A DNA stretch of 56,648 nucleotides from a virus, in the IMG/VR virus record IMGVR_UViG_3300048834_000930, positions 1-56,648 of that record, one strand, 5' to 3'. The position numbers and the translations under genes are program-made. Positions 3,127-29,675 of this stretch are shown piece by piece (the stretch's first letter is position 1; every line of letters begins with the position of its first letter). The notes under the pieces were generated by a model. It was not told the DNA's origin and ran no database searches. It saw nothing but the letters and a program-made list of their open reading frames with translations.

Positions 3127-3128
3127 CG

Positions 3129-7401: not shown

Positions 7402-7416
7402 GAATTCAAGGCGTGA

Positions 7417-8008: not shown

Positions 8009-8434
8009 ATGCCTCAACTTGCAGTGCGCTACAACCCAGCGGTGGGCGGCCTTGATTTGGTCAAGAGAGGATCGTCGCACGTCCTCGATGAAGGATATCT
8101 GACCGCGGAAATCTTGTCGGTGAAGATCGAAGCTCGCGCGAGTGTGCGCGGAGGTCCGCCGCGCGGTGGATGGTGGGCAAATCCAATCCTCGGCTCAAAG
8201 CTCTGGGCGCTGCTCGGCGACAAAATCGACGATACGTTCGCGGCACGAGTTCGAACCGAGCTGATTGCCACGTTTCAATGGATGGTGGACGCCAAGATTT
8301 GTCGCAAGATCGAGGCGACGGCGGTCGCAAAGTCCAATACCGTGACAGGCACGGTCACGCTTCATCGACGCGCGGAGAGTTTGACGGAAGTTCGTCGTTG
8401 GGAGTTGAGCGCCGGGGAGTTCACCTATGCTTGA
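8009..8434 (+). CDS. Mu gp46-like baseplate wedge protein
   Basis: A 141-residue protein with GGAG 8 nt before the ATG. The Phage GP46 pattern is clear: GGPPRGGWWANPILGSKLWALLGDKID in outline, then FAARVRTELIATFQWMVDAKICRKIEA and a final beta-hairpin (GTVTLHRRAESL). It is a gp25/lysozyme-like wedge component that joins sheath and baseplate. It overlaps the gp47 gene by 8 nt and resumes the plus-strand baseplate operon after the reverse cargo pair. Confidence 0.85.
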   Translation: MPQLAVRYNPAVGGLDLVKRGSSHVLDEGYLTAEILSVKIEARASVRGGPPRGGWWANPILGSKLWALLGDKIDDTFAARVRTELIATFQWMVDAKICRKIEATAVAKSNTVTGTVTLHRRAESLTEVRRWELSAGEFTYA

Positions 8435-9473: not shown

Positions 9474-10000
9474 GCGCTCACGACGACATTCTCGAACGCA
9501 TTCAAGATGCGATGCCGGCTGCGTTCTCACGACATCCCGACGCGAACATCACGAAGTTTCTCAAGGGTGCGAGCCATGCTCTGGGTTCGTATCACGAGCA
9601 GTCGCAAGTCGCCTTTGCGCGCGAATTCATTCCGAACAAATCGGTCGACATGATCGAAGAGTGGGAGGTGATTGCCGCTCCGTACGAAGTTGCGAATCGG
9701 CCAGACACGCTCTCCGAACGTCAAGACGCATTGCACGCCAAATTCAACGACGCGGGCGACGTCAAGAATGAAGGGTATCGGCTCTTCGCCGTCGACTTCG
9801 GCTATACGGACGCAGCAATCACGAACTACCACGTCGCACTTTGCACCGACGAATGCACGGTCGAGCTCTACGGGCCCAAATGGCTCTTTGCGATAAGGTT
9901 CGATGCGGCCTCGATTAGCACCGAGCGCGACGCCGTCATGTGCTCTTTGCTCGAAGGTCGGACGCGGCACGGGTGCTACGTGCATTGCAACTTTGCCTGA
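9470..10000 (+). CDS. Mu gp48-like baseplate protein (DUF2313)
   Basis: A 176-residue protein starting MSAHDDILERIQDAMPAAF; the ATG at 9470 overlaps the gp47 stop (ATGA). The pattern of a short helical N-terminus, DMIEEWEVIAAPYEVA (family 'llpdWEr.lGl'), TLSERQDALHAKFNDAGD and a terminal domain that is Cys-rich here fits DUF2313, which joins wedges to tail fibres. It is the last wedge gene before the lipoprotein and fibre genes. Confidence 0.8.
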   Translation: MSAHDDILERIQDAMPAAFSRHPDANITKFLKGASHALGSYHEQSQVAFAREFIPNKSVDMIEEWEVIAAPYEVANRPDTLSERQDALHAKFNDAGDVKNEGYRLFAVDFGYTDAAITNYHVALCTDECTVELYGPKWLFAIRFDAASISTERDAVMCSLLEGRTRHGCYVHCNFA

Positions 10001-10042
10001 CCTTGATTTCGAGAGCGCGAGCAACTGGCGCAAGCTGTCATC

Positions 10043-10360
10043 ATGCAGCGAATCGTTCGTTCACTGGCGCTCTACAACTTCCTTTTCATTGGCGCGATCC
10101 TTCTGAGTTCGGCGGCCGCGGGATGCTCTTCACTGAATGTTCGTAGAGTCCTCAAAGATGTCGACTCTGGACTCGATGTTGCCGACAAAATCGTCGAAGT
10201 GACGAAGGAGCAAGTCGAGGACTTCTGCTCGATCAACCCGAGTTCGAAGCTTTGCGCTCCTACCGTCCAAGCCGAGCTCGCGCCGAAGCTTGAGGCAGGC
10301 CCCGTCGCCGCCGGCGAAATCGAAGCGATCATCAATCAGGAGTCCGCAGTCGCGGAATGA
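10043..10360 (+). CDS. Small phage lipoprotein
   Basis: A 105-residue protein with a basic start (MQRIVRSLALYNF), a hydrophobic core (LFIGAILLSSAAA) and a lipobox-like SSAAAGC with Cys at about residue 28. After lipidation a mostly charged 75-residue domain would remain in the periplasm. Phage lipoproteins of this kind serve superinfection exclusion or lysis (Rz1-like). It is not proline-rich as Rz1 is, and no Rz overlaps it, so exclusion or fibre-associated roles are as likely. Confidence 0.65.
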   Translation: MQRIVRSLALYNFLFIGAILLSSAAAGCSSLNVRRVLKDVDSGLDVADKIVEVTKEQVEDFCSINPSSKLCAPTVQAELAPKLEAGPVAAGEIEAIINQESAVAE

Positions 10361-10363
10361 ACT

Positions 10364-11560
10364 ATGGCCGGCGTACTTTCAAACGACGACGTCGCAGCCT
10401 ATCGGTGGGTCCTGAACAAATACGGGTCGGGCCGACACGGGATGACTGAGGGTGACCCCGTGGCGATCCCACCCGTCTTGCCTTCGTTCTTTCATCCCGA
10501 TTTGCAGGATGAAGACTACCAGGAGATGTTGAATCTCATCGTCGCCCTTGGTGGTACGCCAAGTCGAGAAACGCTGAATCAGGCGGCGACACTTTTGATG
10601 GCGCAATTCGACGATGTTCGCAAGCGAGCGAGATTCGCCGATTGGAATTACGCCTACGTCAGCCCGCTCGCGGGTGGTGCACCTGTCGATCTTTGTGCGA
10701 CGCGTGGGCAAGCATTTGCGCTGATGACAACGAAGTTGATTCGCGTCAACCGTGGGGGCACGATCACCGACACTGGCTACACGGCTGCGTCTCCGCAGTG
10801 GGGTGGCGCGGCGCGAGATGGCTGCATGTATCAAATCTATGCCACGGCTTCCAACGATAGCGTCGCCGGCACAGACAAATTTGATACGATTTCACCGGGA
10901 TCCTCGTTTCATACTACCTCAAATTTCGCGACCAATGACGATTTGACGCGGGTTTACTACGTCCAGACGCCACTCGGCGGAATTGGGACGATGAAGTATC
11001 ATTCGGGCGACCTTGCCGACATTGATACAGGCGAATTAACGCTTGGCGCAAGCGGAGACATCGGGAGCAGCATCCCGGTCAAGGCTTTTGCGACGAACGG
11101 CCGCGTCGTTGCAAGCAAGGATACCGCGACGATGTGGCGAGCAGACGACGGCTCGGGTTCGTGGACGACAAACGCACATTCAACGATCGCCGCCTACTCT
11201 GACTATTGCGCATCGATCAAAACGGCATCTGGCGCCGTGCTTTGCCGGGCAAGTGCGAGTGGATTCGCATATTCGTCCGATTGGGGCGCCACCTGGTCAA
11301 CGGTCTCGTTGCCCGCTGGATTCACCATTTCGGACCTCAAGAGCGATGGCATTGACTTCTATGCCGCGGGTACCGACTCGGGAAAATCGATCGTCTACGT
11401 GAGCCGAGATGGCGCAACGTGGTCATCGAGACCATTGCCAGTTTGGATCGGCACATCACCCAAGATTGCATGCGAAATCTTCGATCCGACCGGCATTCGA
11501 GCGGTTCGGCTTTGGGCAATCGGTTCGGCCAATCTCGTTGCGGTAGGGCGATCATCCTAG
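10364..11560 (+). CDS. Tail fibre / receptor-binding protein with BNR (Asp-box) repeats
   Basis: A 398-residue protein. The N-terminal ~100 residues are helical (ATLLMAQFDDVRKRARFADWN), and the rest is a beta-rich domain with sialidase-type Asp boxes: SSDWGATWST (around residue 305) and SRDGATWSS (around 348), with a degenerate one near ADDGSGSWTT. BNR repeats form beta-propellers common in tail adhesins. Its position after gp48 is where Mu-like phages keep fibre genes. The separate minus-strand fibre operon suggests two adhesins. No catalytic neuraminidase residues could be identified, so this is a binding protein rather than a proven enzyme. Confidence 0.7.
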   Translation: MAGVLSNDDVAAYRWVLNKYGSGRHGMTEGDPVAIPPVLPSFFHPDLQDEDYQEMLNLIVALGGTPSRETLNQAATLLMAQFDDVRKRARFADWNYAYVSPLAGGAPVDLCATRGQAFALMTTKLIRVNRGGTITDTGYTAASPQWGGAARDGCMYQIYATASNDSVAGTDKFDTISPGSSFHTTSNFATNDDLTRVYYVQTPLGGIGTMKYHSGDLADIDTGELTLGASGDIGSSIPVKAFATNGRVVASKDTATMWRADDGSGSWTTNAHSTIAAYSDYCASIKTASGAVLCRASASGFAYSSDWGATWSTVSLPAGFTISDLKSDGIDFYAAGTDSGKSIVYVSRDGATWSSRPLPVWIGTSPKIACEIFDPTGIRAVRLWAIGSANLVAVGRSS

Positions 11561-11574
11561 GGGGGAAAATCAGA

Positions 11575-11913
11575 ATGAACGACACGTTGACGACAATCTT
11601 CGAACTCTCGTCTTCCGCCATCGGTTCCGAATGGTCGAGCGCTGGAGCAATCATCGCTTTCATGATTTGGCTCGTGAAGCGAGTCATGCGGCAAGCGCAA
11701 AAAGACGTGGGCCAGCTCCATCAGCGATTCAACAACCTCGATGCCCGAAATAACACGATCGAATCACAGCTCTCGGAGTTGCGTTCGCTGCGAGAGCGCG
11801 ACATTGGACGAATGCGGGACGTCGAGAAAATGCAGATCGAGACGATGGATCGCGTGACTGAAATCTGCGAACGCGTGGAGAGCTGTCCAAATCTCGCAAA
11901 CGGCCGGGCCTAG
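11575..11913 (+). CDS. Small membrane protein with coiled coil (holin- or XhlA-like)
   Basis: 112 residues from ATG 11575, preceded by GGGGGGAAAA. One TM segment (GAIIAFMIWLVKRV, residues 24-37) is followed by a charged coiled coil (HQRFNNLDARNNTIESQLSELRSLRER, split) and a Cys near the C-terminus. This topology is seen in XhlA-type lysis accessory proteins and phage minor holins. It ends tail to tail with the large minus-strand fibre gene; the stop codons overlap in the palindrome GGCCTAGGCC. Confidence 0.6.
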   Translation: MNDTLTTIFELSSSAIGSEWSSAGAIIAFMIWLVKRVMRQAQKDVGQLHQRFNNLDARNNTIESQLSELRSLRERDIGRMRDVEKMQIETMDRVTEICERVESCPNLANGRA

Positions 11914-14900
11914 GCCACGATCGAAAAGCTCTCGCTGTTCGTCGTTCCTGGCTTTCCTGACGTCGTTCGATAGTCCCAACGCACGGAGACGGTGCCGGCC
12001 TTCGTGCCCGGCGGAAAGTCTTCAGTCTCCCATTCGTACGTCGCAACTCCGGTCGCGACGTCGAAGGTTGTTGCGTTGCGAATCTGCTCGACGCCGCTCT
12101 TCGGCAGTTTGAAAAGCAGTCGAACCGTCGTGTTGTCAATGTCGGCCGGAAGGTCGGACAACGTGCAGATAAGCGGCTTTGCAGTGTCTCCGATGCGTGG
12201 CTGATACGCGGGTGGGATGGTCATTGTTGCGGTCCTCGAATCGATCGAGAAGGTCGATGTTCGCGATGTGATTTCAAACTTCGCACTCGTTGACGTGATT
12301 GCAAAACTCGGGAACGAGCCGGGTGCGGGTGTGTTGGGATTGGCCGCCGGGCTTATCGCTGTCGCCGTGAATGCGCGGGCACGCGGTGAATTGCTTTCAG
12401 GGTAAACCTGCGCGCCGCTGTCGATCGATGCTTCGTTCGCTATGCTCGCGGGAAGTGTTGGCTCAGGCGTGATGTCGACGGTGCCGGTTCCCGTGGCACT
12501 CGCTGCATTCGCCACCGTGGCGGGGGCTGAGCTCGCCGGCGTGATATCTGCCGTGCCAGTCGCGTTGGCCGTCGATGCATTGGCTAGGGCCGCAGGTGCG
12601 GAGCTTGAGGGGGTAAGCTCGCTGCTTCCCGTTGACGTTGCTGTGGTCGCGCTTGCAATCGCACCGGCCGTGTTCGCAGAGGGGCTTGCCGATGCATTGC
12701 CGGACGCAGCGGCCGTCGTCGTGTGAGCGAGCGATGACGCCTCTGTGCCCGATGGGGTTACACTCGAGTTTCCCGTAGCGATGAGTGTGGCGGGGTTTGC
12801 AATTGCGCCGGCCGGCGGACTCTCGGGCGTGACTTCATTACCCTCCCCGGTTGCTGTTGCAGAGTTTGCCGAGGCCGCAGGAGCGCAACCCTCCGGCGTG
12901 ACGGCTGCGTCTCCGTAGGCCGTTGCCGTTGAGGTGTTGGCGATTGCCGCTGAATTGCAGCTCTCGGGCGTGGCAGCCGCATTGCCGGTCGCGTTCGCGG
13001 TGCTGGCGTTGCTGGTCGCGGCAGGATCGGGGCTCGACGGTGTCGCGCTAGCGTCTCCCGTAGCCGTCGAGGTTGATGAATTGGCGATCGACGCAGGACT
13101 GTTGCTCGCGGGTGTGGCGTTTGCGTCTCCGGTAGCCGTCGCGGTCGATGAGTTGGCGATCGATGAGGCCGCAGGACTCTGCGGCTCAGCGGTCGCAGTT
13201 CCGCTTGCCGTCGCCGTCGAAGCAATAGCAATGCTCGCCGCTTCGTTGCTCGCGGGTTCGATTGTTGCCGATCCTGTCGCGCTGGCGGTCGCATCGTTGG
13301 CGATTGCACTGGCCGGAGTGCTCGAGGGCGAGGCGTCGGCGCTGCCGGTACCGACCGCCGTCGCTGAATTGGCAATGGATTGCGGAGAGGTTGCCGCCGG
13401 CGAGGCCGATGCGTCGCCGCTCGCACTTGCCGTCGTGGAGTTGGCGACACTGGCCGCGACGGTTGAGTCGGGCGTGACCGTTTGGTCGGACGCGGCTGCG
13501 GGCAACTTGAGCGCAAGGTAGGCAATCTCAGCAGTGCCCGCGCGCGGCGTGTCCCAAGTGATCGTCGGTGTTCCCGTGAGGCTGAGCGATCCGACATCGA
13601 TGACGCTCCCGCTCGAATCGTAATGGCCGATTGCTCGCGACGTGTCGCTTGCTTGCGTGCCTTCGGTCAGCGACCCGATGAGGTCCGCCCACGTGCGAGC
13701 GTGCGACTGACCGCTTGCATCGGCAACGCCGACGGCCATATTTACGTGGCCAACGATGACGTCTTTAACATCGCCACCGGTGACGACGATCATGAGATCT
13801 GGATCGTCAATCGACCCGATAGACGTCGTCGATGCGCTCGCCGCCTTTGTGACCGTCCCGATGTCAATCTCTGCGCCGTCAAGAAAGAGTGCGAAGTGAG
13901 TAAACGAGTCGCTATCACTACCACTCCATGAGATATCCGAGTATCCTAGCGACGTTGCGCTTGCTGACCAGGTTTCAGCATTGTTATAAATCTGCTCAGA
14001 AAACGCATCGGTTGCGAGTTTTGAGTGAACGTGCGAGCTGCTGCCATCTGGAGAAAATGCTGACCACCCGACGCACCACTGCTTGAGATCGTCGGATATG
14101 TCTTTAGCGATTGCCCCAAACGCGAACATGGGGCCGTCTGTCGACAGAGTAAACGTGTTCGCCGTTGTTGAAACAAGGACGAGGTCTGGAGTAAATTTAG
14201 CTGCGCCAAACGGAAGCGACCCCGAACTTACAGCCGTGGCGTAGTTCCACCATAACATCGTTCGGCCGCCAAAGGCGATCCAGTGGATGATCCTCGACTC
14301 CGTGTCGGTCGTGGTGAAATTTATCGAGAATCCGTCGGATGTTGCAGTTACGGTGCCTAACCGAGATGTGTTGTTGTAGATGTACCCGTAGTTGGATCCG
14401 GCAGCGCGCCGCCCCTTTGTTGCATACGATGCGGCGTCCGCCCGGCCAGCTCCATGATAGCGCCCTGAAGTGGATGCCGAGAAACCGACCCCTTGGCCTG
14501 AAACCTGCGAAGTTCCAGTTCCTGCGGATGTCCACAAGTAGATCGCTTTAGGGGTGAATGACAGCCCGGTGACTACCGATGTGGATCCGGTTGTAGTTGG
14601 CGCGTTAAATGTTCCAGACGCGCAATGGATATCCGGCTGCGAAACCGCGAGCTTACGACTCGGTAAAAATGCATCGCCATTAGCCACGCAGAGATAAAGC
14701 GAGTCCGATTCGTCAAGCGAACCAAACTCAATATCGAACGTGATCGATGTGTCGCTCCACGATGTAACGGTCTGAACAACGGATGTGCCTACGCCGTTTT
14801 GATACGAAGTGCTAAGGATCAGATCATAGGCTTGCGTTGCACCAAATCCAGCGCCAGTAGCAACGACGCTCACCGAGTCTGGACGGGCGAGGTCATTGCA

Positions 14901-14936
14901 GTTGATTGCCGGATCTTTAATGTTGGTGAAGTACAT
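11910..14936 (-). CDS. Large fibre protein with 24-residue repeats
   Basis: A 1008-residue protein. The N-terminal ~115 residues look like an IPT/TIG-type beta sandwich (SVSVVATGAGFGATQAYD). A second domain to about residue 480 has the 'GLSFTPKAIYLWTSAG' phage adhesin pattern. Roughly residues 483-848 are about 15 tandem degenerate repeats of 24 residues (consensus SIANSSTATATGDA-ATP-S-SPA), low-complexity Ala/Thr/Ser. The last ~95 residues (PPAYQPRIGDTAKPL..., PLICTLSDLPADIDNTTVRLLFK) resemble the BppU-type N-terminal domain found in baseplate receptor-binding proteins. It probably forms a long flexible fibre or surface-display stalk. It is on the minus strand, directly after the stop of the gene at 14937-15374. 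Confidence 0.75.
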   Translation of the reverse strand: MYFTNIKDPAINCNDLARPDSVSVVATGAGFGATQAYDLILSTSYQNGVGTSVVQTVTSWSDTSITFDIEFGSLDESDSLYLCVANGDAFLPSRKLAVSQPDIHCASGTFNAPTTTGSTSVVTGLSFTPKAIYLWTSAGTGTSQVSGQGVGFSASTSGRYHGAGRADAASYATKGRRAAGSNYGYIYNNTSRLGTVTATSDGFSINFTTTDTESRIIHWIAFGGRTMLWWNYATAVSSGSLPFGAAKFTPDLVLVSTTANTFTLSTDGPMFAFGAIAKDISDDLKQWCVGWSAFSPDGSSSHVHSKLATDAFSEQIYNNAETWSASATSLGYSDISWSGSDSDSFTHFALFLDGAEIDIGTVTKAASASTTSIGSIDDPDLMIVVTGGDVKDVIVGHVNMAVGVADASGQSHARTWADLIGSLTEGTQASDTSRAIGHYDSSGSVIDVGSLSLTGTPTITWDTPRAGTAEIAYLALKLPAAASDQTVTPDSTVAASVANSTTASASGDASASPAATSPQSIANSATAVGTGSADASPSSTPASAIANDATASATGSATIEPASNEAASIAIASTATASGTATAEPQSPAASSIANSSTATATGDANATPASNSPASIANSSTSTATGDASATPSSPDPAATSNASTANATGNAAATPESCNSAAIANTSTATAYGDAAVTPEGCAPAASANSATATGEGNEVTPESPPAGAIANPATLIATGNSSVTPSGTEASSLAHTTTAAASGNASASPSANTAGAIASATTATSTGSSELTPSSSAPAALANASTANATGTADITPASSAPATVANAASATGTGTVDITPEPTLPASIANEASIDSGAQVYPESNSPRARAFTATAISPAANPNTPAPGSFPSFAITSTSAKFEITSRTSTFSIDSRTATMTIPPAYQPRIGDTAKPLICTLSDLPADIDNTTVRLLFKLPKSGVEQIRNATTFDVATGVATYEWETEDFPPGTKAGTVSVRWDYRTTSGKPGTTNSESFSIVA
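12393..13490 (-). repeat. 72-bp tandem repeat array inside the fibre gene
   Basis: About 15 degenerate copies of a 72-bp unit encoding 24 residues. Nearly every unit has the frame A-N-x-(S/A)-T-x-x-x-T/S-G followed by a T/S-P turn. The copies have diverged at the DNA level, so the array is old or kept diverse. Copy-number change would alter fibre length in whole-repeat steps without loss of frame. Confidence 0.8.
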
Positions 14937-15374
14937 CTAGACCCCAAGCGGCGGAAGTCGTTTGAGTCGCTCAATCTGGGTTGCGAGGGCCGTCTCCCAT
15001 GAAACTGTGCCATCGATTGCCGCCTGCGCAGCATCGCAAAGCTCGTTGGCCAAGTTTTCGAGGAGTCCCAGACCGAAAAGCACGGGGTCGCCGGCGCGCT
15101 GAGCCAATACTTCAGCATGGAGCTCGTCGTAAGCTGCAATGACGCCAGACGTGGACTCCCGCAGCTCAACTTCACCCATCGCTGAGTAATGAGCGATCAG
15201 TGCGCTGAATCTCTGGGGCCGATCTTCGGATATGCCGCCTGCCTGAATCTCCGACATGACGAAGTAAACGGTTACCAATCCAAGAACCCGCACCCGGAGC
15301 TCTGAAACATCCATCGTTGACCAGGTATCGCGGAGCAACGCGAGATGCTCCTCACGTTGGCTTGCGGTGCTCAT
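14937..15374 (-). CDS. Hypothetical structural protein of the minus-strand fibre operon
   Basis: 145 residues from ATG 15374 (MSTASQREEHLALLRDTW), which overlaps the upstream gene's stop (ATGA); a 152-residue version could start at 15395. It is helical, without TM segments or recognisable motifs. Its stop is immediately followed by the fibre ATG at 14936, so the three genes are one operon. A role in fibre assembly or attachment is likely by position only. Confidence 0.6.
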   Translation of the reverse strand: MSTASQREEHLALLRDTWSTMDVSELRVRVLGLVTVYFVMSEIQAGGISEDRPQRFSALIAHYSAMGEVELRESTSGVIAAYDELHAEVLAQRAGDPVLFGLGLLENLANELCDAAQAAIDGTVSWETALATQIERLKRLPPLGV

Positions 15375-15766
15375 GGTTGATTGAGGATGAACCATCCCGC
15401 GGCAGGACAGTTGACGTTTACGCCGCTGCCGTTCGGTGTGAACGCGCAGACGTTGCGTGAGAGCAGGACCGAGGTCGAAGGCGTGCCAGTGTCATGGTAG
15501 ATGTAGACCACCTCAACGGTTGCACCGGTCACGCCGGCGATGTTGGTCGTCGAGCACTTGAACGCGCCATCCGTGACCGTCTTGCCGGCGAGATTGCCCG
15601 ACGTCGCAATGATCGCGCCGCCGGTAATGTCCGAGAGGTAGACGTCGCCATTGTCTTCCGGATGCACGGCTTCATCCACGAGAATCATCTTGATGTCGGC
15701 AGTGAGCAGGTTGAGCGCGCCAGCGACCGCCTCCATCCCTTTCGGGAATACGTAGTTCGTTGCCAT
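15371..15766 (-). CDS. Phage minor structural protein
   Basis: 131 residues from ATG 15766 (MATNYVFPKGMEAV). It follows a phage family whose members read '..aLNLLTADIKMILVDE..', then 'DVYLSDITGGAIIATSGNLAGKTV', then 'VVYIYHDTGTPSTSVLL'. These are small beta proteins encoded near tail-fibre or neck genes. It begins the minus-strand fibre operon. The ATG at 15766 fits the family start better than an in-frame start at 15817. Confidence 0.65.
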   Translation of the reverse strand: MATNYVFPKGMEAVAGALNLLTADIKMILVDEAVHPEDNGDVYLSDITGGAIIATSGNLAGKTVTDGAFKCSTTNIAGVTGATVEVVYIYHDTGTPSTSVLLSRNVCAFTPNGSGVNVNCPAAGWFILNQP

Positions 15767-16175
15767 TGCGTCGAATCTAGAGCGATTGCGAGGACTCGCT
15801 AAATCAAGGCTCGGCAAATCACCTACAGTTCAAACGCGGGATCACGCCGACTAGGACGCGTCAAGACATCCAGCATAACAGCGCATAACAAGCTGCCCCA
15901 AATAGACTAATAAACGTAGGTCTGCGCAGTTTTTCTGGTGCAAATCCTTCTATTCCCGGGCGAAATCGTGCGTCGCAATTTCCGTGCGGACCGGAGAACC
16001 AAACTGAAAGCTTCGATTGCCGAGGGAAATCGCCCTGAATTCCGTTAGTTCAGGTTTTTGTCGAATCGATCGGTGGCCGCGAATTTCGTGGCGCGTCCTA
16101 AGCTGGTTGCCAGTCGCGGCGCTGGGGGTTGATCGCAACGAGAGCGACCCCGTTGCCGACTGGCCTTCTGCGGAT
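15767..16175. other. 409-nt region left of attP, no clear gene
   Basis: This lies between the start of the minus-strand fibre operon (15766) and a weak plus ORF at 16176. It should hold the promoter for the fibre operon. I could not pick a convincing -10/-35 pair. Reading frames on the minus strand (15950-16636) cross the attP core and look like shadows. Confidence 0.4.
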
Positions 16176-16487
16176 ATGCTCGGAAATATGTGTGATTCAC
16201 CATCAGATATTTGCAAATGCGCGGAGCGCCTGCTCCAAGTGCTCGATCTTGAGAAACTGATGCTGCTGACTGGCTCCGATGGCGTGGGTCGCGCATCAAA
16301 CGGGCAATGGATCGCCAGAGTTGGGGAACGAGTCACGCGCGCGGACAGCCTCGAGCTCGCCCTCGTCCAGCATTTGCTCGCAGAAAATCCGAAGGTCACT
16401 TCTACCGTCAACCTCCCGTCAACAAAAAAGCGTGTTCTAGAATTTGGCCGATTAGTCCGCAAGAAGTCTCGAGGATTGATCATGTAG
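16176..16487 (+). CDS. Hypothetical protein overlapping the left attP arm
   Basis: A 103-residue ORF from ATG 16176 (MLGNMCDSPSDICKCAERL). It has a believable helical middle (LLQVLDLEKLMLLTG) and a basic end. The frame crosses the integrase arm sites at 16402-16423 and stops just before the tRNA core, so it may be a small accessory gene or only an open frame. There is no Shine-Dalgarno upstream. Confidence 0.35.
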   Translation: MLGNMCDSPSDICKCAERLLQVLDLEKLMLLTGSDGVGRASNGQWIARVGERVTRADSLELALVQHLLAENPKVTSTVNLPSTKKRVLEFGRLVRKKSRGLIM

Positions 16488-16662
16488 ATTAGCCTCCGAA
16501 GCCGAAGGTCACAAGTTCGAACCTTGTCGCGCGCACCACTGAAAACACTGTTCTGCCGAAGAATGGACCCTAAAACGACCAAAAGAAGTTCTGGCGAATA
16601 GAAGGCGAATAGCAGGCATTTACACCCAAATCGCACTAGGTTACCGTCAACTTACCGTCAAC
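16402..16662 (+). other. attP: arm sites flanking a tRNA-Arg(CCG) 3'-half core
   Basis: The core at 16494-16538 is the 3' part of a tRNA: anticodon loop CTCCGAA (anticodon CCG, Arg), GCCGA, variable AGGTC, T arm ACAAG-TTCGAAC-CTTGT, acceptor CGCGCGC, A and CCA. No 5' half lies upstream. Left arm: CTACCGTCAAC and CTCCCGTCAAC (16402-16423). Right arm: TTACCGTCAAC twice (16641-16662). All are in the same orientation with an 11-bp period, as integrase arm sites are. A second 11-bp-phased pair, GGCGAATAG at 16593 and 16604, may bind an accessory factor. Arms on both sides mean this is an unintegrated attP. Confidence 0.85.
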
Positions 16663-16688: not shown

Positions 16689-17909
16689 GTGCCGAAACTT
16701 GTCAAAAAAGTCATCGAGCAGGCCGAGCCTCGAGCCCGGCCGTACGAGATCATGGATGACGAATTGCGGGGCTTCGGGGTCCGCATTCAGCCGTCATGCG
16801 CTCGCACGCCGAAGGGCACGCGTGTGTTTTTCGTGCGCGTGTACCCGCGAGGAACCGATCGAGAGAAGAAGGTTACGCTCGGCGTCTATGGCGTGATCAC
16901 TATCGACGCCGCCCGCGACAAGGCAATTCAGATCCTTGCTACTGCGCACGAGGGTGGTGACGTTCGACCGGCGCCGTTACCAAGCGTGATGACGGTGGCG
17001 GAATTGGCGAGAATCTATCTCGATCAGCACCTTGCAGTGCACGGAACGAGATCGACGCAGGTGGCGGCCAAGTCACTTTTCAATCGACACCTCATTCCGC
17101 GCTATGGCGAGTATGACGTCGAGAAAATCGATTTCGCGGCGGTGGCCAAACACCATTCGGAGCTTGGCGCGACGAATCCAGAGGTGGCCAATCGGATGGT
17201 CACGATGCTCGCCGCGGTTCTTGCGTGGGGCACCTCGCACGGTCATCGGCGGTCGGCGACGACGCCATGCAAGTGGGACAAGCGCGGGCGAGTCGGAGTC
17301 CGCAAATTTCAGGAGAAGCCACGCGAACGATTCCTGACCGAGGAGCAGGTGCAAAAGCTTGAGATGGCCTTGCGAAACGCGGAGAGCATCGACGGCAAGC
17401 GCAAGGGAGCGGTAAAGATCGATACCTGTGAACTGATCCGCCTCTTTCTCTATACCGGCGCGAGGTTCGGCGAGCTCCACAAGATCACTTGGTCGTTCGT
17501 GGACTTGGAGAATCGAAGGTTGCGTCTCTATCAAACGAAAGAAAAGAAACCAAAGTTCATTCCGCTCAGTGATGGCGCATTCGAGATTTTGGAACGACAC
17601 AAGAATCGAAGGAAGAACGAGCCAAGCGATCGCGTGTTCGACTGCTACAACCCACAACGATCGTGGTCAAAAATCATTCGACCCGCCGCCGGTCTTGATG
17701 CGACCGAGGACGAGCAGGCTTTCACCATTCACGGCTTTCGACACAATCTCGCGTCAATGGGCTTGAACGACGGGCTCTCGCTCCGGACGATCGGTCAATT
17801 GTTGGGTCATTCAAGCGAGAAGACAACCGCTCGCTATGCCCACTTTGCGGACCAGACTTTGACCGACGCCATGCAGCGCATCGGCGACAAGATTAAGCGA
17901 AAGAGCTAG
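16689..17909 (+). CDS. int: Tyrosine recombinase integrase
   Basis: A 406-residue protein from GTG 16689. The N-terminal ~90 residues are the DUF4102-like arm-binding domain of tRNA-targeting integrases (VKKVIEQAEPRARPYEIMDDELRGFGVRI, split; TLGVYGVITIDAARDKA). A SAM-like core-binding domain follows (VAELARIYLDQHLAVHG). The catalytic domain shows Arg in YTGARFGEL (about residue 260), the beta-hairpin Lys in YQTKEKKPKF, HGFRHN, LGHSS and the nucleophile Tyr in ARYAHF (about 386). It recombines attP with the 3' end of host tRNA-Arg(CCG). The gene starts 27 nt after the right arm sites, so integrase binding could repress its own promoter. Confidence 0.95.
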   Translation: MPKLVKKVIEQAEPRARPYEIMDDELRGFGVRIQPSCARTPKGTRVFFVRVYPRGTDREKKVTLGVYGVITIDAARDKAIQILATAHEGGDVRPAPLPSVMTVAELARIYLDQHLAVHGTRSTQVAAKSLFNRHLIPRYGEYDVEKIDFAAVAKHHSELGATNPEVANRMVTMLAAVLAWGTSHGHRRSATTPCKWDKRGRVGVRKFQEKPRERFLTEEQVQKLEMALRNAESIDGKRKGAVKIDTCELIRLFLYTGARFGELHKITWSFVDLENRRLRLYQTKEKKPKFIPLSDGAFEILERHKNRRKNEPSDRVFDCYNPQRSWSKIIRPAAGLDATEDEQAFTIHGFRHNLASMGLNDGLSLRTIGQLLGHSSEKTTARYAHFADQTLTDAMQRIGDKIKRKS

Positions 17910-18136
17910 GCCGCGTCACTGAGCTCGTCCGGCTCGATGCTGGCGACCGTGAGAAGCTCTGCGATCGCGGCCATCACTTCGTTTGTGCAGTGCACGATCA
18001 TCGATCGCGCGATGGCGCCGTCGTGATTGGCGAGTGTCTCCGCGTGCAGGTTGGCCGCCCATTGGACGACGCGCATGGAGAGGCAGGGGAGGACTGGGTT
18101 GAGGACCATAGGCCGTGCTCGACCAGCGGCCGACAT
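17906..18136 (-). CDS. Hypothetical protein
   Basis: A 76-residue protein, MSAAGRARPMVLNPV..., on the minus strand, ending tail to tail with the integrase (4-nt overlap). It is helical (VQWAANLHAETLANHDGAIARSM) with no recognised motif. It is the last gene of the 17906-20128 minus-strand block. Confidence 0.45.
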   Translation of the reverse strand: MSAAGRARPMVLNPVLPCLSMRVVQWAANLHAETLANHDGAIARSMIVHCTNEVMAAIAELLTVASIEPDELSDAA

Positions 18137-18192: not shown

Positions 18193-18339
18193 TTACTTCT
18201 TTTGCTGATCAGTTGGCGGCCGCGGATTTGAATCGACGCCACTCCGCCTGGTATCGAGATTCTTCGGATCGGCAGGCGGAATCGGGTTTGGCTTGCGCGT
18301 GATAGTAAGAGGCTCACCCTTAGTCTGATCCTGTGACAT
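18193..18339 (-). CDS. Small proline-rich protein, partner of SLATT-like copy A
   Basis: A 48-residue ORF from ATG 18339 (MSQDQTKGEPLTITRKPNPI) overlapping the end of the two-TM gene at 18320-18847 by 20 nt. It is polar and Pro/Lys-rich, without TM. Its start resembles that of the ORF at 18932-19108, which overlaps the paralogous two-TM gene in the same way: both begin MS-x4-x-EP-(L/F)-T. The repeated arrangement argues that both are real. Confidence 0.5.
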   Translation of the reverse strand: MSQDQTKGEPLTITRKPNPIPPADPKNLDTRRSGVDSNPRPPTDQQKK

Positions 18340-18847
18340 TATGCGACTTTTGCACACCTGCGGCAGAAATTCCAAGTGCATCATGGGCTTCGCGCTGAAA
18401 TTTGAGAATGCGCCGCTTGGAGTCGCTAACACTGTTCTGCAGCTTACCTATGGCCATAAGTTCCGATTCAAGCCTTTGAATTTCTTCGTCAGAGATCTCG
18501 TGGCCAAGCTCGCATTTTCGCCAAAGCTCCTTCGTTTTTTGCACCAAATCGGTCCAGCGAGGAATGGATAGCGAGAGGCAGACGATCTTTTCTCGCAAGC
18601 ATAGCCATCGCTCAAGACTAACAAGTGCAGCTGGCAATGCGGCCAAAATTGAAGTTGCAAGCGGCTCCTTGCCAGCATAGGACAGCAAACTTGTCAGACC
18701 CGTGGAGATTACCCCGCCTGCGTAAGCAATGCCGAGCAGCCTTCGGCTCCAGTCGTACATCGACTTTGCTTGCAACAGATTGGCCAGCGAGTCACATCTG
18801 AGATCGTTAATGGCAATTCGAACTGGCTCTGGATTGATGCTCACCAT
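18320..18847 (-). CDS. Two-TM SLATT-like membrane protein, copy A
   Basis: 175 residues from ATG 18847 (MVSINPEPVRIAINDLR). A helical N-terminus is followed by two TM segments (LLGIAYAGGVISTGLTSLLSY and, less clearly, LATSILAALPAALVSL) and a long cytoplasmic coiled coil (RWTDLVQKTKELWRKCELGHE; IQRLESELMAIGKLQ). This is the SLATT layout (SMODS- and SLOG-associating two-TM effectors). It is paralogous to copy B at 19041-19607: LPAALVSLERWLCLREKIVCL against IPAVLVALERSLGLREQIVIL. SLATT proteins are thought to form pores in defence systems. In a prophage it could give superinfection exclusion. No nucleotide-sensing partner is adjacent. Confidence 0.6.
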   Translation of the reverse strand: MVSINPEPVRIAINDLRCDSLANLLQAKSMYDWSRRLLGIAYAGGVISTGLTSLLSYAGKEPLATSILAALPAALVSLERWLCLREKIVCLSLSIPRWTDLVQKTKELWRKCELGHEISDEEIQRLESELMAIGKLQNSVSDSKRRILKFQREAHDALGISAAGVQKSHNVTGSD

Positions 18848-18892
18848 GCGTCTGATGATCGCAGAGTGAGGCCAAAAAAACAAAACCAAGGC

Positions 18893-18917
18893 TCACTCCC
18901 CATCCAATTTCGACGGC
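18893..18917 (-). repeat. 25-bp repeat upstream of copy A
   Basis: Matches 19670-19694 at 24 of 25 positions. On the minus strand it encodes the last residues (PPSKLDGE-stop) of a truncated copy of the regulator gene's 3' end, and lies 45 nt before the start of SLATT-like copy A. It marks the boundary of an old tandem duplication. Confidence 0.85.
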
Positions 18918-18931
18918 GGGCGCATCACGAC

Positions 18932-19108
18932 TTACTCGGCCGGCTTAGGCGGATTGCTTCCGGATGGGTCGCTTGGCAATGAAGGCGAGGGAGTTGGCTG
19001 CGGGCGAGGCAGTGTTGCCGGTCGCTGCAACTTTGTATCCTCACGTCGTTCGGGTGTTGTTGCTGGGCGAAGTGGCTTCGTAAAGGGCTCTCTCTCGTTT
19101 CCGGACAT
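18932..19108 (-). CDS. Small proline-rich protein, partner of SLATT-like copy B
   Basis: A 58-residue ORF from ATG 19108 (MSGNEREPFTKPLRPATTPE), overlapping the 3' end of copy B by 68 nt in another frame. It is strongly proline-rich (PATLPRPQPTPSPSLPSDP), so probably disordered or SH3-ligand-like. It is the counterpart of the ORF at 18193-18339. Because Pro-rich frames can arise as shadows in G+C-rich DNA, the case rests on the repeated arrangement. Confidence 0.45.
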   Translation of the reverse strand: MSGNEREPFTKPLRPATTPERREDTKLQRPATLPRPQPTPSPSLPSDPSGSNPPKPAE

Positions 19109-19607
19109 GAGGCAGCATTTTAGCGTCTGGAGGCAGCAGGCCAAGTGCAATTTCGGCCTTTATTAGAAACTCAGCCGACGCCTTCTCGTCATCTGGAAGT
19201 GACGCCTGGGCACTCTCAATCGCGTCACGCTTAGATTCGAGGCGCCTGATGTCATCTTTTAAAACCAGCTCGCCGGAGATCACCTCTCGGTAGAGATCGC
19301 ACGCCTCACGATCTAGTTCGAGCCACTGACTATGCGTTCTGCCAAGGATCACAATCTGCTCTCTTAGGCCAAGGCTTCGCTCAAGAGCCACCAGAACCGC
19401 TGGAATCCCGGTCAATACTGTTAGCAGCAGCTTCTCCCAGCCGACGCTTGCGCCGTATGCAGTAACAAGAGACATGACTGCTCCAGTGAACATCATGGCA
19501 TTGAGATACCTCCGCGCACGGTCAAGATTCGCCTTGCACTGCAAATAATTCATCCGAGCATAAACACGCAGTTCATTCGCTGAGATCTGAATCGGAGTCA
19601 ATTCCAT
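19041..19607 (-). CDS. Two-TM SLATT-like membrane protein, copy B
   Basis: 188 residues from ATG 19607 (MELTPIQISANELRVYARMN), with GGGAAGG upstream. Same plan as copy A: an N-terminal helix with N-LR, two TM segments (LNAMMFTGAVMSLVTAYGA; LLLTVLTGIPAVLVAL), then LERSLGLREQIVILG and a coiled coil (DDIRRLESKRDAIESAQ), ending in ALGLLPPD. Identity to copy A is moderate by eye, highest after the second TM, so the duplication is old. It lies 62 nt downstream of the regulator gene on the same strand and may share its promoter. Confidence 0.6.
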   Translation of the reverse strand: MELTPIQISANELRVYARMNYLQCKANLDRARRYLNAMMFTGAVMSLVTAYGASVGWEKLLLTVLTGIPAVLVALERSLGLREQIVILGRTHSQWLELDREACDLYREVISGELVLKDDIRRLESKRDAIESAQASLPDDEKASAEFLIKAEIALGLLPPDAKMLPHVRKRERALYEATSPSNNTRTT

Positions 19608-19669
19608 GTGCGAACCTTCCCGCAAATCACTCTGAAAGCAAACTCAAGGATCATCCCCGCCATCGGCGA

Positions 19670-19694
19670 TCACTCCCCATCCAATTTCGGCGGC
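19670..19694 (-). repeat. 25-bp repeat upstream of copy B
   Basis: Partner of the repeat at 18893-18917. Here it is the intact 3' end of the regulator gene (…PPKLDGE-stop), 62 nt before the start of copy B. Spacing between copies is 777 bp, the length of the duplicated unit. Confidence 0.85.
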
Positions 19695-20128
19695 CACTCA
19701 CCTTCCCAACCCGGAGGACGGCCGGCCTTGAGCACACCCGCCGTGAGCATCCATCGGCCCACGGTTGCGGTTCCCATCGCATTGCATGCTTTCGACCACT
19801 TTTCGATGGCCAGTCGCAAGGCTGGATCTATTTCGATGCTGATTTTCGGGCTCTTGGTTCTTGGGGTCTTGGTGGCAGACGAGTCAATCTCAAGATTGCC
19901 AAAAAGAACCTCTCGTTGCGCCTCTTCCTCTAGCGTTATGGCCTTGTCGCGACGGCGGCCACCCTCAGATGTCTTTTCTCGAGAGAGAGCATCAAGCGTC
20001 GCTGCGTCGAGCTCTGCCTCTGCCACCCTCATCTCCTGTGTCATGGCGGCAATAGCCTCCTGATCGCCGGAGGATAGGATTTCAACGAGGGAATCCGTCG
20101 CTTCCTGCAGTCGCCGAGTTGCGGCCAT
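19670..20128 (-). CDS. Putative DNA-binding regulator (RHH-like C-terminus)
   Basis: 152 residues from ATG 20128 (MAATRRLQEATDSLVEIL); a TTG at 20158 is possible. The first two thirds are a charged coiled coil (MTQEMRVAEAELDAATLDALSRE) with a basic patch (GGRRRDKAITLEEEAQREV; TKTPRTKSPKISIEID). The end, ISIEIDPALRLAIEKWSKA followed by VGRWMLTAGVLKAG, has strand-helix-helix spacing like a ribbon-helix-helix domain. It is divergent from the excisionase-like gene at 20350, the position of a lysogeny repressor. A structural match would be needed to exclude other roles. Confidence 0.5.
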   Translation of the reverse strand: MAATRRLQEATDSLVEILSSGDQEAIAAMTQEMRVAEAELDAATLDALSREKTSEGGRRRDKAITLEEEAQREVLFGNLEIDSSATKTPRTKSPKISIEIDPALRLAIEKWSKACNAMGTATVGRWMLTAGVLKAGRPPGWEGEWPPKLDGE

Positions 20129-20311
20129 GAGTCGCCGCGTTCGAGGGACAAGGGTCAAGGCGCGGAGTATGCCAAAGTCGAACGCTTGTGCACCTGAACG
20201 GATTATCAGTGCTTTAGATCCTAGAATTCACGCTTTCTGGGCCGCACGTTCATTTCCGCTCGAAATGCGCGCTATGTCCGCATTTAATACCACGAAATTA
20301 CTCCCACGTAA

Positions 20312-20349: not shown

Positions 20350-20709
20350 ATGCCTGAATCCAAACGACAGCCGGACTACGGCTTTCTGGCCGAACTCGAA
20401 AATGCCGGCCAACAGCTACTCACCCCGGCCGAGGCGAGTCGCGTCCTCGGAATTACCGAGTCAGCGCTCTACCAACGCCGACGCCAAGGCGTCGCGCCGA
20501 ACTACAACAAGCGCGAGGACGGTCGCGTGGTCTATCTGCTCGAAGTTATCAGTGTGTACCTGCGAGGCGCGAGCACGGCTTCCACAACTGAATCGCGTGC
20601 GCGGAGACTCGGCCTTCTGCCCGCCAAAACCATCACGAAGTCGCGGGGCTCCAAATCTCAGCCAGTAATCAGCCGCAAGCCAGGCGAGGGGGTCTCCCGT
20701 GACCGGTGA
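20350..20709 (+). CDS. Excisionase-like / helix-turn-helix protein
   Basis: A 119-residue protein with a MerR/HTH_17-type winged helix in residues 22-70: QQLLTPAEASRVLGITESAL (helix-turn-helix), YQRRRQGVAPNYNKREDGRVVYLLEVISVYL (wing and last helix). Xis proteins and phage transcription factors share this fold. It is the first gene of the rightward early operon, divergent from the regulator at 19670-20128. It could direct excision with Int, or open early transcription. The basic tail (TITKSRGSKSQPVISRK) is probably disordered. Confidence 0.7.
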   Translation: MPESKRQPDYGFLAELENAGQQLLTPAEASRVLGITESALYQRRRQGVAPNYNKREDGRVVYLLEVISVYLRGASTASTTESRARRLGLLPAKTITKSRGSKSQPVISRKPGEGVSRDR

Positions 20710-24555: not shown

Positions 24556-25500
24556 ATGCTAACTGAAGCGCAAAAAATTGTCCGTCTCGGACGCATGACT
24601 TCATCAGTTGTCTCGGGTGCGCTCGGCGTAAACCCTCACATGACACCGATCGCAGCATGGGAATCGATCCGCGGCGAGTCACTTTTTGAGGGCAACAAGG
24701 CCACTGAGCGGGGCAATCTGCTCGAAGAGCCGATCTTGCAATACCCGTGCGAGGCAATGGGCCTTGTTCGCGGCCCGGTCAACTTCGTTTCGATCGAAGA
24801 TTGGGCCGGCGATTCAACCGATGCCACCTATTACCAAGATGGCAAACTCATCGCCATTGGCGAAGGCAAGTCCGTCGCGCAGGGAGCTGAGAAAGGCTGG
24901 GGCGAACCCGGCACCGATCAGGTTCCGCCGCACGTTGCCATTCAATGCCACTGGCACTTGATCCACTGGCCCGAGGCTGAGCGGTGTTTGGTCCCTGTGC
25001 TATTCGGCGGCTACGATTTTCGATTCGAAATCTACATCGTCGAGCGTGACTCGGAGATCGAAGAGCATCTTTGGGCGCAAGCGAAGGCGTGGCACGAAGA
25101 ATACGTGATCGGCAACGTGCGACCTCCAGTCAATGGCGGCGACATGGCATGGCTCAAGGCGCGGCATCCATGCAACTTCCGCGACGAGCTTGAGTTTAGC
25201 CCCACGCTGGATGAGCTATGCTTTCAAGCCTTGGAGGCGACCGAGAATCGCAAGGCGTATGAGCTGATTGAAGAGTCGGCCAAAGCTCGGGTCATGGACT
25301 GGCTCGGAGACTACGGCACGCATCGCGGCGCACTGACGCAAGTAACGTGGCGCAACAACAAAGACTCGCTCAAGACAGACTGGGAGGCTGTTGCAATGGC
25401 CTTGGGGGCAACGCCCGAGCTGATTGCCGCCCACTCGGAAATGAAGCAAGGCACTCGCGTCTTGAAAATTTCGCAAGCAAAATTGAAAGGTAAAAAATGA
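24556..25500 (+). CDS. YqaJ-type viral recombinase (exonuclease)
   Basis: 314 residues from ATG 24556, with GAGGAAAAGGAAAAG upstream; a TTG at 24538 would add six basic residues. It has the PD-(D/E)xK plan of the lambda-Exo/YqaJ family: RLGRMTSSVVSGALGVNPH near the start, ERGNLLEEPI (Glu of motif I), Asp in GDSTDATYYQDGKLI and AIGEGKSV (ExK). VPPHVAIQCHWHL is the conserved 'p.y..Q.q..l' helix. It degrades one DNA strand to produce 3' tails for annealing. It is coupled to the next gene by an ATGA overlap. Confidence 0.85.
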   Translation: MLTEAQKIVRLGRMTSSVVSGALGVNPHMTPIAAWESIRGESLFEGNKATERGNLLEEPILQYPCEAMGLVRGPVNFVSIEDWAGDSTDATYYQDGKLIAIGEGKSVAQGAEKGWGEPGTDQVPPHVAIQCHWHLIHWPEAERCLVPVLFGGYDFRFEIYIVERDSEIEEHLWAQAKAWHEEYVIGNVRPPVNGGDMAWLKARHPCNFRDELEFSPTLDELCFQALEATENRKAYELIEESAKARVMDWLGDYGTHRGALTQVTWRNNKDSLKTDWEAVAMALGATPELIAAHSEMKQGTRVLKISQAKLKGKK

Positions 25501-26843
25501 TTAAAGGGTTCACACCGCAACTTGCCGAGGGTGGCAAGATCAAAATCGGCGGGCTCGGAGAGGCTCGCAAAAGCAAGAATGGCAACGAATTTCGAATGCC
25601 GGTAAAGCACGACCATTTTCTCGTGACCGAGACCGAGCGCGATCCGGCGACGAGCAACTTTCGCGTGCGCGAGAGCGTGATGGAGCAACTGAAAAAAGAC
25701 GATGATGGGCAGGTTCGCGAGATTCCAATTTTCGTTCACTCGGATGAAATCGAAGAGGTGTTTCCGACTGCATACGCGCTTTACTCCGGTCGGAGAATGC
25801 AGTGCCGTGGCGATGGAGAAGAGGCGATGCGCAAGAATGATGCCGGCGTGGCGGTGAAGGTCGCTTGCCCATGCGATCGCCTTGTGAAGCGGGAATGTAA
25901 GCCGCACGGCACGTTGCATTGCTCGATACGCGTGCCTGGCCAGGGACTTGCCGGCGCGGTCTACAAAGTGCGCACGACGTCCGAGATTACGATTCGTCGC
26001 ATCATCGGTTCGCTGATTCAGATTCGGCAGACGGTTGGAGTTTTGCGCGGGCTGCCGCTCGTGCTTTGTCTGAAGCCTGTCGACGTCAATCCTGGCGGCG
26101 TCGCGTCGAAGGTCTACGTGCTTCATATCGAGCTCCGCGAAGAGAATCTGATTGAAGTTCAGCGCCAAGCGATCGAGTCGGCGAAGATGCGCGCGAGCGT
26201 GATGCGAGCGTACGACATTGACTACAAGCAGCTGATTCAGGGGCCTGGACTTGATGAGGATGACGATGAACAGGACCACCTCAACCAAGAGTATTCCCCG
26301 GAAACGGTGAATCCGGGCGAGGTGTCCGTTGTCACTGTCGAGTCGCTCACGCAAAAGGTGCGAGAGGCTGGCAGTGCTGGCGCGCAGAGCGTTCGAGAAA
26401 AGCTTGGCATGGGCAATGCTGCGCCGCCGAAGCAGCTTGAGCAGCCGAAGCCGGTCGCATCGAACCAGGTCGCCGCGTTGCCTGTCAGTGATCGCGTCAA
26501 ATCAGCATTCGCATGGCTCGGCGCGAAGGGGCTGAAAGAGAAAGTCGTGCTCGGCAACATTGGGCGCGAATCTCTTGCCGATGTCACCGACGACGATTTT
26601 GCAATCCTTCGCATCGCCGTCAAGGCGATCCAAGGTGGGGGCAAGCCGGAGCTCGCGCTCATCTCGGCATGTTGGGCGTCGAGGGGTGTGCGAGACGATG
26701 AGCTTGCGCAGATCCTCGGCCGAATAACGATCGACGAGATCGACGATCACGATCGAGAGGCTCTCATTCGGGCGGCGAAGTACGATGACCCGAAGAGATT
26801 TCTGCTTGGTGTTGTTGGAGCTGAAGAGAAAGAGGCAGGATAA
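25497..26843 (+). CDS. Gp3/recombination directionality factor-like protein
   Basis: A 448-residue protein. The N-terminal ~260 residues resemble the Gp3-like (phiC31 RDF-related) family: GGKIKIGGLGEARKSKNGNEFRMPVKHDHF in outline, REIPIFVHSDEIEEVFPTAYALYSG, then CRGDGEEAMRK and CPCDRLVKRECKPHGTL (Cys cluster). The C-terminal third is acidic then helical (SRGVRDDELAQILGRITIDEI). It occupies the place between exonuclease and SSB where a single-strand annealing protein (RecT, Erf, Bet) normally sits, and no other annealing protein is present. It may anneal DNA rather than steer an integrase. The phage has a tyrosine integrase, so a serine-integrase RDF role makes little sense. Confidence 0.6.
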   Translation: MIKGFTPQLAEGGKIKIGGLGEARKSKNGNEFRMPVKHDHFLVTETERDPATSNFRVRESVMEQLKKDDDGQVREIPIFVHSDEIEEVFPTAYALYSGRRMQCRGDGEEAMRKNDAGVAVKVACPCDRLVKRECKPHGTLHCSIRVPGQGLAGAVYKVRTTSEITIRRIIGSLIQIRQTVGVLRGLPLVLCLKPVDVNPGGVASKVYVLHIELREENLIEVQRQAIESAKMRASVMRAYDIDYKQLIQGPGLDEDDDEQDHLNQEYSPETVNPGEVSVVTVESLTQKVREAGSAGAQSVREKLGMGNAAPPKQLEQPKPVASNQVAALPVSDRVKSAFAWLGAKGLKEKVVLGNIGRESLADVTDDDFAILRIAVKAIQGGGKPELALISACWASRGVRDDELAQILGRITIDEIDDHDREALIRAAKYDDPKRFLLGVVGAEEKEAG

Positions 26844-29607: not shown

Positions 29608-29675
29608 CCCCCAAAATCAACCTCACACTCCAAGTCGACGCCCCGGCGCCGGCGGTTGAGGAGATTTGCAGATGA
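29604..29675 (+). CDS. 23-codon leader ORF
   Basis: ATG 29604 overlaps the previous stop (ATGA) and the frame (MTPKINLTLQVDAPAPAVEE...) runs to a TGA at 29673-29675 that overlaps the next ATG at 29672. It carries ribosomes across what would otherwise be a 64-nt gap and delivers them at the repeated initiation region, so it may serve coupling more than a peptide function. Confidence 0.4.
   Translation: MTPKINLTLQVDAPAPAVEEICR
29656..29675 (+). repeat. 20-bp translation-initiation repeat, copy 1
   Basis: TTGAGGAGATTTGCAGATGA, with GAGGAG as Shine-Dalgarno and ATG at 29672. Identical to 29977-29996. Confidence 0.85.

What the first reader, a model, noticed from the sequence alone, without database searches (positions are those of the whole stretch)
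18193..19694. Duplicated two-gene module: two-TM SLATT-like protein plus overlapping proline-rich mini-protein
Two adjacent minus-strand units have the same design. Each has a 25-bp element (24/25 identical), a two-TM coiled-coil membrane protein, and a short Pro-rich ORF overlapping its 3' end in another frame. The membrane proteins align over their whole length (strongest after TM2, LPAALVSLERWLCLREK against IPAVLVALERSLGLREQ), and both small ORFs begin MS-x-EP-(L/F)-T. Unit A also retains a remnant (PPSKLDGE-stop) of the regulator gene's 3' end, which shows the direction of duplication. The proteins have diverged far more than the 25-bp element, so the element may be under its own selection. 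In a prophage lysogeny region this looks like an exclusion or abortive-infection device.
Basis: partly seen in the sequence, partly recalled or inferred. Interest (0 to 1): 0.75.

Follow-up and report, generated by a model that had tools for sequence, protein, structure and literature searches.

The report
Stacked pair of prophage membrane genes
Next to its integrase, a virus that lives inside bacteria carries two distantly related copies of a small gene set, each a membrane protein plus a tiny proline-rich peptide, which probably help the infected cell to resist rival viruses, although this is untested.

Summary
Two adjacent minus-strand genes in a temperate phage's lysogeny region encode homologous two-TM proteins: 53 of 153 aligned residues identical, score 215 against at most 47 in 500 shuffles. 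Each is preceded by the same 25-bp element (24/25). Each is overlapped at its 3' end, in the same phase, by a short Pro-rich ORF. Taken from their ATGs, both small ORFs have a composition that 0 of 1506 simulated ORFs reached. Their claimed shared N-terminal motif is not significant.

SLATT has moderate support. Both AlphaFold models retrieve SLATT-named viral proteins (8 and 6 of 50 rows, none at E<=0.001), and one protein matches NCBIfam SLATT_4 at E 0.0024, far below its cut-off. Profile tests failed. No relative was found in the collections searched, with limited sensitivity.

The element is the last codons of the upstream gene and carries a Shine-Dalgarno-like sequence. The membrane genes share only 45% of their DNA, so equal-age duplication does not explain it; recombination stacking two diverged alleles, or selection on the element, does.

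Most likely function: lysogen-expressed membrane effectors of superinfection exclusion or abortive infection, Rex-like by position (inferred, 0.4). A SLOG-family gene 16 kb away is a possible partner.

The parts
19041..19607 (-). Membrane protein B, 188 aa, two predicted TM helices then a coiled-coil-like helical region; start ATG 19607 with GGGAAGG 7 nt upstream
   Evidence: weak NCBIfam SLATT_4 match E 0.0024, 17.7 bits, cut-off 55; Foldseek BFVD: 8 of the 50 listed rows are SLATT-named
18320..18847 (-). Membrane protein A, 175 aa from ATG 18847; an in-frame TTG at 18889 (189 aa) lies 6 nt after GGGGAG of the element and is an alternative start
   Evidence: Foldseek BFVD: 6 of the 50 listed rows are SLATT-named
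18932..19108 (-). Small ORF B, 58 aa, 15 Pro, no Cys; overlaps the 3' end of B by 68 bases in phase +1; no Shine-Dalgarno sequence evident by eye
   Evidence: composition outlier; codon usage score reached by 30% of 67 out-of-frame ORFs (scored from the preceding codon at 19111)
18193..18339 (-). Small ORF A, 48 aa, 9 Pro, no Cys; overlaps the 3' end of A by 20 bases in phase +1; an in-frame ATG 15 codons further upstream is an alternative start (63 aa)
   Evidence: composition outlier from this ATG; codon usage score reached by 3% of 67 out-of-frame ORFs
19670..19694 (-). 25-bp element, copy 1: the last codons and stop of the upstream gene; carries GGGGAG, 9 nt before a 21-codon leader ORF (19598-19663) that overlaps the start of B
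18893..18917 (-). 25-bp element, copy 2 (24/25 identical), a remnant of the 3' end of the upstream gene placed before unit A; GGGGAG 6 nt before TTG 18889
19670..20158 (-). First gene of the same-strand gene run, 162 aa from TTG (or from ATG 20128); no family found; possible lysogeny regulator by position only
   Evidence: divergent to an HTH-like gene at 20350-20709 (HTH_17 E 1.6e-4, 22.3 bits, below its cut-off of 27)
17906..18136 (-). 76-aa ORF after unit A; codon usage score above all 67 out-of-frame ORFs; unknown function
16689..17909 (+). Tyrosine integrase that defines the lysogeny region (context)
   Evidence: Pfam PF00589 E 9.2e-25, phrog_1 E 1.9e-58

Best explanation
This is a lysogenic-conversion ('moron') cassette in a temperate phage. 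It holds two diverged alleles of one module, placed in tandem behind the same upstream gene by recombination through that gene's 3' end. Each module makes a SLATT-like two-TM membrane protein, with a helical hairpin in the membrane and a long helix in the cytoplasm, and, overlapping its 3' end, a disordered Pro-rich peptide. In a lysogen the membrane protein most likely sits as an inactive oligomer. Infection by another phage opens it, depolarising the membrane and blocking or aborting that infection; the Pro-rich peptide acts as its inhibitor or sensor. Shown: homology and selection on the two membrane proteins, two hydrophobic helices, repeat, overlap, unusual composition of the small ORFs. 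Moderately supported: SLATT-like fold. Inferred: expression in the lysogen, topology, oligomer or pore, role of the small peptide, exclusion function.
For: Homology and selection on the proteins. Helical two-TM models with SLATT-named structural neighbours for both proteins and a weak SLATT_4 hit. Position: in a lysogeny region beside the integrase, convergent with it and behind a gene divergent to an HTH-like gene. Third-position GC of 0.53-0.56 against 0.68 in 18 of the phage's main genes, as for acquired genes. Small ORFs of the same unusual composition. Precedents, from passages: TIR-SLATT pairs in firmicute phages, and the suggestion that viral TIR domains may limit superinfection (PMC9503650); a SLATT protein required for defence in DRT10 (PMC12632851); a prophage RexAB in an operon whose first gene is the putative repressor, with a growth-suppressing membrane effector (PMC12894663); Sbash gp30/31, where the membrane protein is proposed to be an ion channel (PMC6426596).
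Against: Sequence tests for SLATT mostly fail, and Pfam, PHROGs and PADLOC show nothing below E 0.05 for A or B. Helical hairpins are a common shape: PDB neighbours were unrelated helical proteins, none at E<=0.001. The two models come from the same two-row alignment, so searches are not independent, and no other two-TM protein was folded as a control. No nucleotide-signal enzyme (TIR, NTase) was recognised beside the module, whereas 3 of 8 SLATT_4 matches read here stand next to one by eye. No relative was found, so conservation of the pair could not be tested. Small ORF B has ordinary out-of-frame codon usage.
Confidence: 0.4

Rival explanations
1. Tandem duplication of one module in place, followed by long divergence, with the 25-bp element kept by its own selection as a ribosome-binding and translation-coupling site (or unknown operator).
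For: Both copies put GGGGAG close before a start codon: TTG 18889 in frame with A, and a leader ORF that overlaps the start of B. Unit order and phase are the same.
Against: A Shine-Dalgarno sequence needs about 6 bases, not 24 of 25. Upstream of A the codons are no longer part of a long gene, yet the last 20 bases, stop included, are identical. Probability 7e-8 if the element diverged like the genes.
Confidence: 0.25
2. The Pro-rich ORF is not a separate peptide but the C-terminal tail of the membrane protein, reached by +1 ribosomal frameshifting.
For: Same phase in both copies and the frame is open upstream for 36 and 17 codons. No Shine-Dalgarno sequence is seen by eye before either ATG. 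One SLATT_4 protein above the family cut-off, L106, has a Pro-rich C-terminal tail in frame: 9 Pro in its last 44 residues.
Against: The Pro-rich, hydrophobe-poor composition begins at the ATG in both copies, by eye. No recognised slippery sequence was seen by eye; no systematic search for one was made.
Confidence: 0.2
3. The membrane proteins serve the phage's own cycle (a holin or antiholin-like function or membrane anchoring of replication) and not defence against others.
For: Two-TM helical proteins can be holins (recalled). No holin or endolysin was recognised among the ORFs scanned, which are a part of the window's ORFs.
Against: The genes lie in the lysogeny region and run against the late genes. 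Part of the genome is missing from the window, about 5.7 kb seen in G001, and lysis genes may lie there or among unscanned ORFs. There are two diverged copies.
Confidence: 0.15
4. The module works with the phage's own SLOG-family gene at 35188-35598, which would make or bind an ADP-ribose-type signal that gates the SLATT-like proteins.
For: PF10686 YAcAr (SLOG), 65.5 bits, cut-off 28.2. SLATT is predicted to be an ADP-ribose-derivative-regulated effector (PMC9503650).
Against: The gene is 16 kb away on the other strand. SLOG domains are reported in 7, 19 and 31% of small, medium and jumbo phages and are argued to counter host signalling.
Confidence: 0.1

Closest known systems
SLATT 2TM effectors (NCBIfam SLATT_4, NF033632)
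   Same: Two TM helices with a short loop, then a long helical C-terminal part. Both models retrieve SLATT-named proteins, those listed being of viruses of eukaryotes. In firmicute phages SLATT stands with TIR.
   Different: Below the curated cut-off and no profile-profile match. No recognised signal enzyme adjoins it; a tiny Pro-rich ORF overlaps it instead, seen after 0 of 8 SLATT_4 matches.
Prophage RexAB-type systems (lambda RexAB; Pseudomonas putida RexABpp; Sbash gp30/31)
   Same: A membrane protein with a partner, encoded in a prophage; RexABpp lies in the operon that begins with the putative repressor.
   Different: RexB, RexBpp and Sbash gp31 have four predicted TM helices, these have two. 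[quoted passage not shown] the partner here is a 48-58 aa Pro-rich peptide.
Rz/Rz1 spanins (recalled)
   Same: A short Pro-rich ORF overlapping the 3' end of a coiled-coil membrane protein gene.
   Different: The small ORFs have no Cys, so no lipobox. The membrane proteins have two TM helices, and the locus is not a late lysis cassette.
DRT10 (UG17 reverse transcriptase with SLATT)
   Same: A SLATT-domain protein needed for anti-phage defence.
   Different: No reverse transcriptase was recognised among the window ORFs scanned.

Membership tests
SLATT (NCBIfam SLATT_4) | Score above the curated cut-off of 55 bits | tested here: not met
   B 17.7 bits (E 0.0024), A none at E<=10
SLATT (NCBIfam SLATT_4) | Profile similarity to SLATT_4 matches | tested here: not met
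   hhalign with 7 SLATT_4 matches, of which 3 pass the cut-off: probability 4.6% over 20 columns (one comparison in two orders). Home-made profile of 6 of them: B at E 9, below shuffled sequences; A not among the 25 best of 743. Both profiles are small and diverse, so the test is weak
SLATT (NCBIfam SLATT_4) | Two TM helices followed by a long helix | tested here: met
   Hydropathy and models; membrane topology itself not tested
SLATT (NCBIfam SLATT_4) | Fold similarity | tested here: inconclusive
   8 and 6 of 50 listed BFVD rows SLATT-named; best named row E 1.8e-3 for B and 9.7e-2 for A; PDB gives no match at E<=0.001 and only helical bundles in the second look
SLATT (NCBIfam SLATT_4) | Adjacent nucleotide-signal or RT partner gene | tested here: not met
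   Adjacent ORFs scanned show no such family; a SLOG gene lies 16 kb away
Rex-like exclusion system | Four-TM RexB and DNA-binding RexA | tested here: not met
   Two hydrophobic helices and Pro-rich peptides
Rex-like exclusion system | Placed in the immunity operon and expressed in the lysogen | tested here: inconclusive
   Same-strand run behind an unidentified gene in the lysogeny region; expression not testable here
Rz/Rz1 spanin | Rz1 lipobox Cys and single-TM Rz | tested here: not met
   No Cys in either small ORF; two hydrophobic helices
Anti-phage defence system | Protection against phages in an assay | not testable with these tools
   No PADLOC match for the five proteins given

The most novel reading that the evidence does not exclude
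A new kind of prophage exclusion system: a stand-alone SLATT-like pore gated by a Pro-rich micropeptide encoded across its own 3' end, with no nucleotide-signal enzyme. Such modules would be stacked as diverged alleles by recombination through the 3' end of a conserved neighbouring gene, giving one prophage several specificities.
Probability: 0.15. Interest if true: 0.7.

Novelty: new variant of a known kind. Interest (0 to 1): 0.45.

Why it matters
If it works as proposed, it is a minimal two-part exclusion device in which a micropeptide takes the place of the signal enzyme often found beside SLATT-type effectors. It would also show how prophages collect alternative versions of a defence gene at one site. 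Tiny overlapping ORFs like these are easily missed by annotation.

Tried and rejected
Relatives of A and B: tblastn in phages with B and A and in plasmids with B only, two viral-contig scans and one genome-contig scan found none; those scans need exact or nearly exact 8-9 residue patterns and see close relatives only. The two phage records G001 and G002: none. HMM searches in 24 genomes at E<=0.1, 385 and 369 at E<=0.01 and 198 at E<=0.001 gave 1, 5, 4 and 0 genomes with a partial match, none full length, about what chance allows at those limits.

Host: terminase relatives are spread over Proteobacteria in the wide sense at 40-49% identity (80 best of 101 kept). The tRNA 3' half at the probable attP was not found with up to 1 mismatch in 240 and 229 genomes of two classes, nor exactly in viral contigs. 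The host remains unknown.

Relatives of the upstream gene: none in viral contigs, phages or PDB. Exact 20-base core of the element in viral contigs: none. RNA structure over the two leaders: not more stable than shuffles (z 0.94 and -0.50). Promoter-like sites 1 found, 1.1 expected; terminator-like 6 found, 3.1 expected, sd 2.0, not followed. Rfam at gathering scores: nothing. Rz/Rz1 spanin rejected (no Cys, two TM helices, position). Integrase and exonuclease relatives gave only distant matches. The PDB second look listed BAR-type and other helical bundles; no SLATT family appeared there, which excludes nothing.

Full report
What the window is. The record is a 56,648-base virus record. It carries a terminase, portal, protease, major head protein and sheath, a tyrosine integrase at 16689-17909 and a RecE-like exonuclease. 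A second viral record, G001, is 99.9% identical over window 41005-56648 and 1-15988 and has about 5.7 kb between window end and window start. The window is thus probably a permuted, slightly incomplete phage genome. G001 does not reach the module region, so its lack of a match says nothing about the module.

The observation. On the minus strand, 20158 to 17906, runs an unidentified gene (162 aa), then unit B, unit A and a 76-aa ORF. The 25-bp element is at 19670-19694 and 18893-18917 and nowhere else in the window. The two membrane proteins align over 153 residues with 53 identities, score 215 against a maximum of 47 in 500 shuffles. Identity by codon position is 45%, 58% and 33%, expected 25-26% from composition. 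Both genes have therefore been kept for their protein sequence, and third positions are near saturation.

The small ORFs. The chance of an ATG ORF of 48 codons or more in a given phase near a gene end is 7.8% in a Markov model. Two in the same phase, either one, is about 1%. Composition is: from their ATGs both are Pro-rich and poor in hydrophobic residues to a degree reached by 0 of 1506 simulated ORFs of the region, and jointly by 0 of 1504 ORFs from a model trained on the small ORFs' own DNA (in that model 4% reach small A's Pro content and 0.2% small B's). Of 67 out-of-frame ORFs inside confident genes, 1 and 0 reach their Pro content and none their low hydrophobic content. Codon usage supports small ORF A (3% of 67 reach it) and not B (30%). 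No Shine-Dalgarno sequence precedes either ATG (by eye).

The element. In copy 1 it is the last codons and stop of the upstream gene. In copy 2 it is a stump of the same, in frame after the stop of small ORF B. It contains GGGGAG, 6 nt before TTG 18889, which is in frame with A, and 9 nt before a leader ORF (19598-19663) whose stop overlaps the start of B. It therefore has a plausible translation role. But the genes behind it have only 45% DNA identity, and 24 of 25 identical at that divergence has probability 7e-8. I conclude that the two units were probably already diverged alleles when one junction placed a second copy of the upstream gene's 3' end between them. A phage with a RecE-like exonuclease could do this through short homology; that step is inference.

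Is it SLATT? For: NCBIfam SLATT_4 hit for B, E 0.0024. The AlphaFold models (pLDDT 72.6 and 74.2, both from the same two rows) find SLATT-named proteins of viruses of eukaryotes in 8 and 6 of the 50 rows listed. Against: the cut-off is not reached; hhalign with seven SLATT_4 matches, three of them above the family cut-off, gives 4.6%; a home-made profile of six of them ranks B among shuffled sequences; no BFVD row has E<=0.001; no control two-TM protein was folded. PDB comparisons are uninformative. I call it SLATT-like in fold, not a member.

How it differs from known SLATT loci. Of eight SLATT_4 matches whose flanks were read (three above the cut-off), by eye the gene next to L105 and L102 looks like a nucleotidyltransferase and that next to L110 like a TIR protein, overlapping by a few bases. 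None of the eight has a Pro-rich mini-ORF there by the criteria. One, L106, has a Pro-rich C-terminal tail in frame, which keeps the frameshift rival alive. In the window, no such enzyme was recognised next to the module. A SLOG-family (YAcAr) gene stands at 35188-35598.

Literature seen. Passages only: PMC9503650 (phage TIR-SLATT pairs, SLOG in phages), PMC12632851 (SLATT required for DRT10 defence), PMC12483538, PMC8934634, PMC7159879, PMC9122126, PMC12220804, PMC6426596 (Sbash), PMC12894663 (P. putida RexAB). The library holds no paper with both words SLATT and proline-rich. Searches for SLATT with phage, prophage, CBASS, superinfection or SLOG terms (two searches listed 20 of 59 and 20 of 57 papers, many irrelevant) listed none that, by title and start of abstract, describes such a pair. 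Subscription papers are mostly not in that library.

Verdict. The structure is real, and the fold assignment is plausible but not proven. The function is inferred from position and precedent. Interest is moderate: no relatives were found, so nothing yet shows that the pair travels as a unit beyond this phage.

Noticed in passing
window 16499-16538: Probable attP: the sequence reads by eye as the 3' half of a tRNA gene (Arg CCG?) ending in CACCA, flanked by TACCGTCAAC repeats at 16403-16423 and 16642-16662 that look like integrase arm sites. ARAGORN finds no whole tRNA.
   Followed up: partly
window 35188-35598: YAcAr (SLOG) family protein, PF10686, 65.5 bits: possible nucleotide-ligand partner for SLATT-like proteins.
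   Followed up: partly
window 11910-14936: 1008-aa minus-strand ORF with a long Ala/Ser/Thr-rich repetitive region, following two smaller minus-strand ORFs (14937-15395, 15371-15817); function not looked up.
   Followed up: no
window 29666-29980: Phage ProQ C-terminal-like domain protein (PF24203, E 5e-8).
   Followed up: no
   Followed up: no
window 25497-26843: Recombination-directionality-factor-like protein (PF18897, E 1.1e-27) with no tblastn match in the phage collection.
   Followed up: no
window 43754-43857: Local direct repeat with an offset of about 40 bases, seen as two shifted 62-64-base blast matches before the terminase genes.
   Followed up: no
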